From an uncultured Eubacteriales bacterium (lineage in GTDB: Bacteria > Bacillota_A > Clostridia > Lachnospirales > Lachnospiraceae): DNA of 9,108 bases. The notes under the pieces are model-generated. The model did no database searches. It saw nothing but the letters and a program-made list of their open reading frames with translations, and was not told where the DNA came from. The position numbers were made by a program, and so were the translations under genes. The stretch covers positions 1 through 9,108 of the forward strand of contig CADCPV010000126.1 in NCBI GenBank assembly GCA_902803345.1, given 5' to 3'. This document shows, in pieces, positions 3,966 through 5,087 of the stretch (its first letter is position 1; every line of letters starts with the position of its first letter).

Positions 3966-5087
3966 TCAGTTCCTCTCTTTCTCTTTTTCTTTCTTTTTTT
4001 TGCCGCGCACGATCCGCTCTTCCGGAGGCGGACATGCGTTGCTGATGTAAATCATTGACAGAAGCGAAAATACAAAGGCCTGCATCACACCGGCAAATAC
4101 GTCAAAATACAGGGAAAGCACAGCCGGGATGCCGAGTGTCAGGAAAGGCACTTCCATCGGGCCGCCGAGAATCAGGATGATGCCCGAAACGCCCAGTAGA
4201 AGCAGCACTGCCCCGAGGACTTTGGCGCCTTTGAATTTCGCAAAAAGCAGGATTCCGGTGCCGACGAGGATTATCAGGAGCCCCGTAAAATACAGGATCA
4301 CTGTCAGGTTCTGCGGCAATGTGGGATAAGTAAAGGAAACCCATCCCGACACGACCTGCGCGAGAGACAGGAGGCCGAGAATTCCGCAGAGTGCACCGAT
4401 CGATTTCACCGCAAGCTTCACCTTGCTGTTCTTCGGTTTCAGCGCAAACAGGAGCACTGCACCGACCCCGATCAGGATCAGCGTCACGGCAATCCCGGAG
4501 CCGGATGCAAGCCTCAGAAGCGCCGCCGACGCGCCGGAAAGTGCCCAGTAGATCAGCGTTGTAATGACCGATCCGCCGGCGATATTGCCGAAATGACGGA
4601 ACGCGAGCGACACCGGCTGCGCGAACTCCGAGACGATATTCATCGGTGTCATTACCGAGATCGGCTCGGTGAAGCTCTTGAGCCAGGCCTTAAGTCCGAT
4701 GTTTTTGATATTCTGGAACCAGATGATCAGGGTCGTCATAACGGCCCAGGTCGCGGTCGTGGAAAGGTCTGCCGTTGAGGAACGCAGGATTCCGGTCATA
4801 CCTAAAAGAGATCCAAGAATCGAAGACAGGAACAGGGTTGCAATATAGGGCGTCCAGGAGGAATTGTGCTTCCCCATGGCTTCCTCGACAAGGTTGTAAA
4901 TGACCGTGACCGCCTTTTCGGTCAGCACCTGTACGGAACCGGGACGCTTTTTCAGCTTCCTCCCTAAAAGAATGCCGGCTGTGCACAGAATCAGGGAAAC
5001 GATGGCACAGGTGAGCATGGTCTGCGTCACGTTGATGCCGCCGAAGACGGGAATGGTAAAATAGATTTTCGGGCCGGTAATATTCAA
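3966..5087 (-). CDS. atpB: F1Fo ATP synthase a subunit with a ~125-residue inserted membrane domain
   Basis: Subunit a forms the two ion half-channels beside the c ring. At 373 residues it is over 100 residues longer than usual (about 220-280). The core is intact: an N-terminal part with helices near 20-42 and 80-100, [18 protein letters not shown] (141-158), the essential arginine Arg164 in [12 protein letters not shown], then [16 protein letters not shown] (318-333) and [16 protein letters not shown], where Gln336 matches E. coli Gln252. E. coli has 42 residues between Arg210 and Gln252; here there are 172. The extra stretch, about 185-311, is four predicted helices. The C-terminus is a lysine-rich tail (about 356-373). 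The start is TTG at 5085-5087, overlapping the atpI stop as TTGA, with a perfect GGAGGTGA upstream; an in-frame TGA four codons upstream rules out an earlier start. Confidence 0.95.
3994..4001 (-). other. A8 run forming an A-AAA-AAG slippery heptamer near the end of atpB
   Basis: The lysine-rich tail of AtpB is coded by AAA AAA AAG AAA, giving eight adenines in a row and the heptamer A-AAA-AAG in the phase used for -1 frameshifting in E. coli dnaX. The purine-rich stretch continues to the atpE ribosome binding site. I see no clear downstream hairpin, and the -1 frame runs through atpE without recognisable protein features, so function is unproven. Confidence 0.4.
4155..4535 (-). other. Inserted four-helix membrane domain within AtpB
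   Basis: This is the segment coding for about residues 185-311 of subunit a, absent from standard subunit a. Hydrophobic stretches lie at about 199-216, 229-249, 261-283 and 288-309. The lysine-bearing loops (KPKNSKVK near 217-224 and KFKGAK at 284-289) alternate with an uncharged loop ([12 protein letters not shown], 249-260). By the positive-inside rule the lysine loops face the cytoplasm. An even number of helices therefore leaves both flanking channel helices in their normal orientation, with the insert joining them on the outer side. The reading frame is continuous and codon use resembles the surroundings, so this is not a frameshift artefact. Its boundaries are approximate and its function is unknown. 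Confidence 0.8.

What the first reader, a model, noticed from the sequence alone, without database searches (positions are those of the whole stretch)
4155..4535. Four-helix membrane domain inserted into ATP synthase subunit a between the arginine helix and the last helix
Seen directly: AtpB is 373 residues and has 172 residues between Arg164 and Gln336, where E. coli has 42 between Arg210 and Gln252. The extra part is hydrophobic, in frame and bounded by fully conserved subunit a sequence ([16 protein letters not shown] before, [16 protein letters not shown] after). Known: these two helices are the membrane-intrinsic hairpin facing the c ring, and their connecting loop is on the outer (periplasmic-type) side. 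Inference: a compact transmembrane bundle now sits beside the outer ion half-channel and could gate ion access, bind an accessory protein or lipid, or stabilise the stator. I know of no described function for such an insert.
Basis: partly seen in the sequence, partly recalled or inferred. Interest (0 to 1): 0.8.

Follow-up and report, generated by a model that had tools for sequence, protein, structure and literature searches.

The report
Duplicated membrane hairpin inside ATP synthase
In a group of gut bacteria, the ATP synthase part that passes ions to the rotor has gained an extra pair of membrane helices, later doubled to four, at a spot where most other sampled bacteria have none; what they do is unknown, most likely bracing the stationary part.

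Summary
AtpB (3966-5087, minus strand, 373 aa) keeps the conserved subunit a landmarks but has 172 residues from Arg164 to Gln336; E. coli has 42. The extra part is in frame, hydrophobic, and predicted as four helices with alternating loop charge.

Relatives show how it arose. In 214 distinct AtpB sequences the Arg-Gln spacing falls into steps: 39-43, 60-64, 104-112 (one extra hairpin) and 169-184 (two), with one at 88. The one-hairpin profile matches both halves of the four-helix insert better than controls or column shuffles, so the insert is most likely one hairpin duplicated in tandem.

It is rare: of 130 PF00119-bearing genomes sampled across the phylum only the reference genome itself shows it. 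No relative outside AtpB was recognised. All 83 scored loci of the three longer classes have a two-carboxylate, Na+-type subunit c, hairpins or not, so the insert does not set ion type.

Most likely role: a lipid-facing structural extension of the stator. A gate is poorly supported: no charged residue is conserved in the membrane-spanning cores. Function is untested.

The parts
3966..5087 (-). atpB, F-type ATP synthase subunit a, 373 aa, TTG start at 5087
4536..4649 (-). conserved arginine helix aH5, residues 147-184, with Arg164 (codon 4596-4598); predicted to continue to residue 196
   Evidence: invariant columns in a 120-row alignment; helix 147-196, pLDDT only 54-62 over 141-170
4332..4499 (-). 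insert hairpin 1 (helices I1 and I2, residues 197-252; positive loop 218-229)
   Evidence: charge, hydropathy; helices 199-215 and 221-250; matches the single hairpin of shorter relatives, prob 98
4152..4331 (-). insert hairpin 2 (helices I3 and I4, residues 253-312; positive loop 284-292); probable tandem copy of hairpin 1
   Evidence: helices 259-282 and 286-307; single-hairpin profile vs hairpin 2, prob 96; hairpin 1 vs 2, prob 80; shuffles
4035..4130 (-). conserved last helix aH6, residues 320-351, with Asp329 and Gln336 (Gln336 codon 4080-4082)
   Evidence: invariant columns; helix 320-351
3719..3964 (-). atpE, subunit c, with GEG in the first helix and AETTGIY in the second (two-carboxylate, Na+-type pattern)
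   Evidence: compared with passages of PMC3692424
5084..5503 (-). atpI-like gene directly upstream; overlaps the atpB start by 4 bases
   Evidence: PF03899 at E 0.00078, below cut-off
5512..5769 (-). atpZ-like gene (PF09527)
   Evidence: E 0.00061, below cut-off
3161..3667 (-). atpF, subunit b, 168 aa
   Evidence: PF00430
2625..3164 (-). atpH, subunit delta
   Evidence: PF00213

Best explanation
Subunit a in this lineage carries an add-on made of two-helix membrane hairpins, placed at the outer turn between the arginine helix (aH5) and the last helix (aH6). SHOWN by sequence: the insert exists, is in frame, recurs in many relatives, and comes in whole-hairpin steps. STRONGLY SUPPORTED: the four-helix form is a tandem duplication of the one-hairpin form. 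INFERRED: the four helices cross the membrane out-in-out-in-out, so that aH6 keeps its orientation, and they lie in the lipid beside the end of the a/c interface where the outer half-channel reaches the c ring. There they act as a hydrophobic buttress that enlarges the stator's membrane footprint and holds the ends of aH5 and aH6 in place. They do not conduct ions and do not set the ion type.
For: Spacing falls into 39-43 / 60-64 / 104-112 / 169-184 in 213 of 214 sequences, one more at 88. The hairpin profile of 72 shorter relatives matches half 1 (prob 98, E 4e-15) and half 2 (prob 96, E 4e-9) of the 88 two-hairpin sequences, and the halves match each other (prob 80, E 1.3e-5). Against subunit c, AtpI, AtpZ, aH1, aH3-4 and aH5 the insert profiles reach at most prob 10.1 in the pairs tried. 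In 100 segment-wise shuffles of half 2 the one-hairpin score averages 12.9, maximum 24.6, against 43.0 observed; the half 1 score has maximum 22.6 against 28.5; in 100 shuffles of half 1 the one-hairpin score has maximum 28.7 against 69.4. Conserved glycines recur at aligned places: G209/G276 and G231/G292. Loops 218-229 and 284-292 are positive, loop 253-262 has almost no positive charge. Purifying selection: dN/dS 0.17-0.46 in eight overlapping pairs. Charged residues are almost absent from I1 (0.2%) and I3 (1.6%); those of I2 and I4 (16.4% and 8.2% over the predicted helix spans) include their positively charged starts. In the PS3 structure the outer half-channel reaches the c ring through the gap between helices 5 and 6 (PMC6377231, passages); that the turn lies near there is inferred.
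Against: The insert evolves much faster than the core (core dN/dS 0.00-0.18; mean column entropy 1.2-2.4 bits over 185-308 against 0.23-0.27 in aH5 and aH6). No helix-periodic conservation was found in the four insert helices (combined p = 0.20), so a conserved packing face is not shown. Close relatives live with one or no hairpin. On duplication: shuffled profiles can reach hhalign probabilities of 62, 40 and 82, so the scores, not the probabilities, carry the case; the one-hairpin profile also matches the out-of-register stretch I2-I3 at prob 63 over 23 columns, about one helix. Placement beside the a/c interface is inferred; no a-c complex could be modelled. The two-hairpin model is of moderate confidence (pLDDT 76, pTM 0.63; only 54-62 over residues 141-170 of the arginine helix region).
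Confidence: 0.5

Rival explanations
1. Neutral elaboration: a hydrophobic hairpin was tolerated at a permissive outer turn, duplicated, and is kept only because parts of it cannot now be lost without misfolding; it brings no benefit.
For: Low conservation, no conserved face, copy number varies between relatives: one-hairpin L060 falls within the two-hairpin group and hairpin-bearing L077 is sister to hairpin-free L076. A hairpin of other sequence sits at the same site in L089.
Against: Purifying selection on the whole insert (dN/dS 0.17-0.46) and presence in many relatives.
Confidence: 0.27
2. Docking or dimerisation site: the bundle binds an accessory membrane protein, another ATP synthase, or a specific lipid.
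For: Exposed membrane bundle at the edge of the stator (inference); AtpI and AtpZ homologues lie upstream in 10 of 10 two-hairpin loci with room upstream.
Against: Frames that look like AtpI and AtpZ by eye also lie upstream in 10 of 12 hairpin-free loci that I read (L031 has no room, L076 shows one frame), so they do not track the insert. No conserved surface found.
Confidence: 0.13
3. Ion-access control: the bundle lines or lids the outer half-channel, or shields freshly loaded Na+ sites as they leave the stator.
For: Inferred position at the outer turn next to where the outer channel meets the c ring (PMC6377231 passages); c subunits of Na+-type pattern.
Against: No conserved charged residue in the bilayer-spanning cores of the insert; the c-subunit motif is the same in 38 of 38 hairpin-free loci of spacing 60-64.
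Confidence: 0.08

Closest known systems
F-type ATP synthase subunit a (PF00119; PS3, E. coli, chloroplast, Chloroflexus structures)
   Different: Spacing from Arg to Gln 172 instead of 42 in E. coli; the best-matching solved chains align 194-222 of the 373 residues in the first 20 rows
Acinetobacter baumannii a-subunit insertions (PMC8849298, passages read)
   Same: Lineage-specific insertion in subunit a near an ion channel
   Different: There a 12-residue loop between aH4 and aH5 and an N-terminal insertion; here four predicted membrane helices between aH5 and aH6
Enlarged aH3-aH4 periplasmic loop of bacterial and chloroplast subunit a (PMC6377231, passages read)
   Different: Other loop; no added membrane helices mentioned in the passages
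Fusobacterium nucleatum two-carboxylate Na+ c ring (PMC3692424, passages read)
   Same: Two glutamates per ion site in subunit c; the match of positions and of the Ser/Thr-Thr-Tyr pattern in helix 2 is recalled
   Different: Concerns subunit c; a hairpin insert in subunit a was not looked for in that paper

Membership tests
F-type ATP synthase subunit a (AtpB) | PF00119 match above the curated cut-off | tested here: met
   133 bits against 33.9, two stretches; the NCBIfam equivalog cut-offs were not reached (best 160 of 272 bits)
F-type ATP synthase subunit a (AtpB) | conserved Arg in aH5 and Gln in aH6 with flanking motifs | tested here: met
   R164 and Q336 aligned in 214 of 214 rows
F-type ATP synthase subunit a (AtpB) | atp operon context | tested here: met
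   atpZ-like, atpI-like, atpB, atpE, atpF, atpH, atpA, atpG in order (atpA and atpG read by eye)
F-type ATP synthase subunit a (AtpB) | usual length of the aH5-aH6 connection (about 40 between Arg and Gln); a variant feature, not a defining one | tested here: not met
   172
Two-carboxylate Na+-type ATP synthase | Glu at the position of GEG in helix 1 and E[ST]TG[IL]Y in helix 2 of subunit c | tested here: met
   83 of 83 scored loci, window included, of spacing classes 60-64, 104-112 and 169-184
Two-carboxylate Na+-type ATP synthase | Na+ drives rotation | not testable with these tools
   the paper itself names Mycobacterium tuberculosis and a Streptococcus as sharing the motif, so sequence alone does not prove Na+ use
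AtpI / AtpZ origin of the hairpins | profile similarity of insert to AtpI or AtpZ | tested here: not met
   best prob 7.1, hairpin 1 against AtpZ

The most novel reading that the evidence does not exclude
A modular, duplicating two-helix unit has been built into the rotor-facing core of a bacterial Na+-type ATP synthase, and its copy number (0, 1, 2) tunes how the outer ion channel and freshly loaded c subunits are sealed from or coupled to the membrane.
Probability: 0.1. Interest if true: 0.85.

Novelty: new variant of a known kind. Interest (0 to 1): 0.6.

Why it matters
aH5 and aH6 are the most conserved parts of this subunit in its own lineage (lowest entropy), and no other genome in a phylum-wide sample shows added membrane hairpins between them. 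A natural series with zero, one and two extra hairpins shows that this spot can grow by whole membrane hairpins, records a likely duplication inside a membrane machine, and offers ready-made variants for testing what the outer end of the stator does.

Full report
OBSERVATION. AtpB lies at 3966-5087 on the minus strand with a TTG start. Arg164 and Gln336 are 172 residues apart; E. coli K-12 AtpB, fetched from its genome record, has Arg210 and Gln252, 42 apart. Pfam finds PF00119 at 133 bits in two stretches. The coordinates given, 4155-4535, are residues 185-311.

RELATIVES. All 214 keep the Arg and Gln columns. The spacing from Arg to Gln is 39-43 in 14, 60-64 in 38, 88 in 1 (L089), 104-112 in 73 and 169-184 in 88. 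The set is biased towards the window, so these are not frequencies in nature. The jumps correspond to a longer outer loop (about 20 residues), one hairpin (about 46) and a second hairpin (about 65).

RARITY. In 149 genomes drawn across the phylum of G003, 130 carry PF00119. Only G003 itself, the reference, is split by the insert; the other listed matches each run through the aH5-aH6 part in one piece, the longest taking 732 bases (244 residues) for 216 model positions, and two (G349, G385) are partial at the N-terminal side. So 1 of 130, and that one was the centre of the sample. In 200 genomes of G003's family, 103 match the window's AtpB (E <= 0.001); of the 30 loci fetched, 3 have two hairpins, 15 one and 12 none (L057, L058 and L066 counted with their identical or same-place rows L004, L003 and L016).

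ORIGIN. Profiles were compared with hhalign: 72 one-hairpin rows (L077 left out) and 88 two-hairpin rows. The single hairpin matches half 1 of the four-helix insert at probability 98 and half 2 at 96; the halves match each other at 80. In the pairs tried against subunit c, AtpI, AtpZ, aH1, aH3-4 and aH5 the insert profiles reach at most 10.1. The single hairpin also matches the out-of-register stretch I2-I3 at 63, over 23 columns, about one helix. To control for general hydrophobic make-up I shuffled columns within loop and helix segments, 100 times each. For half 2 the one-hairpin score had mean 12.9 and maximum 24.6 against 43.0 observed, and the half 1 score maximum 22.6 against 28.5. For half 1 the one-hairpin score had maximum 28.7 against 69.4. 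The shuffles reached probabilities up to 62, 40 and 82, so the probabilities alone would mislead. Conserved glycines recur at aligned positions, 209 with 276 and 231 with 292. I conclude that the four-helix insert is most likely a tandem duplication of one hairpin.

HISTORY. A tree of the core without the insert was built from 132 of the 214 rows (bootstrap not fully settled). All classes together need 7 changes, against a shuffled mean of 69. The two-hairpin sequences sit among one-hairpin ones. L077 (one hairpin) is sister to hairpin-free L076, and L060 (one hairpin) lies within the two-hairpin group, so that starred branches force at least two changes for that class. In a 40-row tree a single clade of two-hairpin sequences is not rejected (p-AU 0.385), though only 2% of 200 bootstrap trees have it. 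One duplication with a later loss of one copy in L060, or two duplications, both fit. Whether the 24 hairpin-free rows nested in the main clade lost a hairpin or never had it is open.

CONSTRAINT. In eight overlapping pairs of two-hairpin genes the insert has dN/dS 0.17-0.46 and three core parts 0.00-0.18; a ninth pair was not in the set. Several dS values are near or above 1 and one is infinite, so the ratios are rough. The insert is kept, but loosely. No charged residue is conserved in the bilayer-spanning cores: charge is 0.2% in I1 and 1.6% in I3; the 16.4% in I2 and 8.2% in I4 include the positively charged starts of the predicted helices. A test for a conserved helix face was negative (p = 0.20).

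SURROUNDINGS. Operon neighbours are ordinary. Subunit c has GEG plus E[ST]TG[IL]Y in 38 of 38, 34 of 34 and 11 of 11 loci with spacing 60-64, 104-112 and 169-184 (window included), and in L089; with spacing 39-43 GEG occurs in 1 of 13. This resembles the two-carboxylate Na+ site of Fusobacterium nucleatum (passages of PMC3692424; the exact positions are recalled), a motif that other bacteria share, so Na+ use is likely and not proven. It is present without hairpins, so the hairpins do not set ion type. Frames that look like AtpI and AtpZ by eye lie upstream in 10 of 12 hairpin-free loci read.

MECHANISM. In Bacillus PS3 the outer half-channel is formed by helices 1, 3, 4 and 5 and reaches the c ring through the gap between helices 5 and 6 (passages of PMC6377231). 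The hairpins grow from the outer turn of helices 5 and 6, so they should sit at the end of the a/c interface (inference). Hydrophobic, loosely constrained, glycine-marked and lacking conserved charge, they look like a lipid-facing buttress (0.5). Neutral elaboration (0.27) is the main rival; docking (0.13) and ion-access control (0.08) are less likely.

NOVELTY. Seven full-text searches of open papers aimed at it showed no such insert in their listings. Known subunit a insertions that I read about in passages are a loop between aH4 and aH5 and N-terminal insertions (PMC8849298) and a larger aH3-aH4 loop (PMC6377231). I rate this a new variant of a known enzyme.

Noticed in passing
L109 (G002), AtpB frame starting near base 1101: The genome of two-hairpin relative L002 also holds a second AtpB frame, without the insert by eye, followed by a subunit c whose alignable part lacks the window's ETTGIY pattern and by an AtpF-like frame (by eye): two F-type ATPases of different kind may coexist (contamination of the assembly not excluded).
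   Followed up: partly
L106, L107 (G063, G208) and L108 (G198): Second AtpB frames of 417, 417 and 474 aa with hydrophobic hairpin-like sequence ahead of an otherwise ordinary AtpB; part of the frame may be upstream of the true start.
   Followed up: partly
L089 (G218): A different two-helix hairpin, with spacing 88, at the same aH5-aH6 turn of a distant AtpB on a long branch: possibly an independent insertion.
   Followed up: no
window 5084-5087: atpB starts with TTG overlapping the atpI stop; relatives L001 and L002 also have Leu (not Met) at this first position.
   Followed up: no
window 8112-9074: Multi-helix membrane protein without Pfam or NCBIfam match at E <= 0.1, resembling a polysaccharide flippase by eye (recalled), possibly cut by the window edge.
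   Followed up: no
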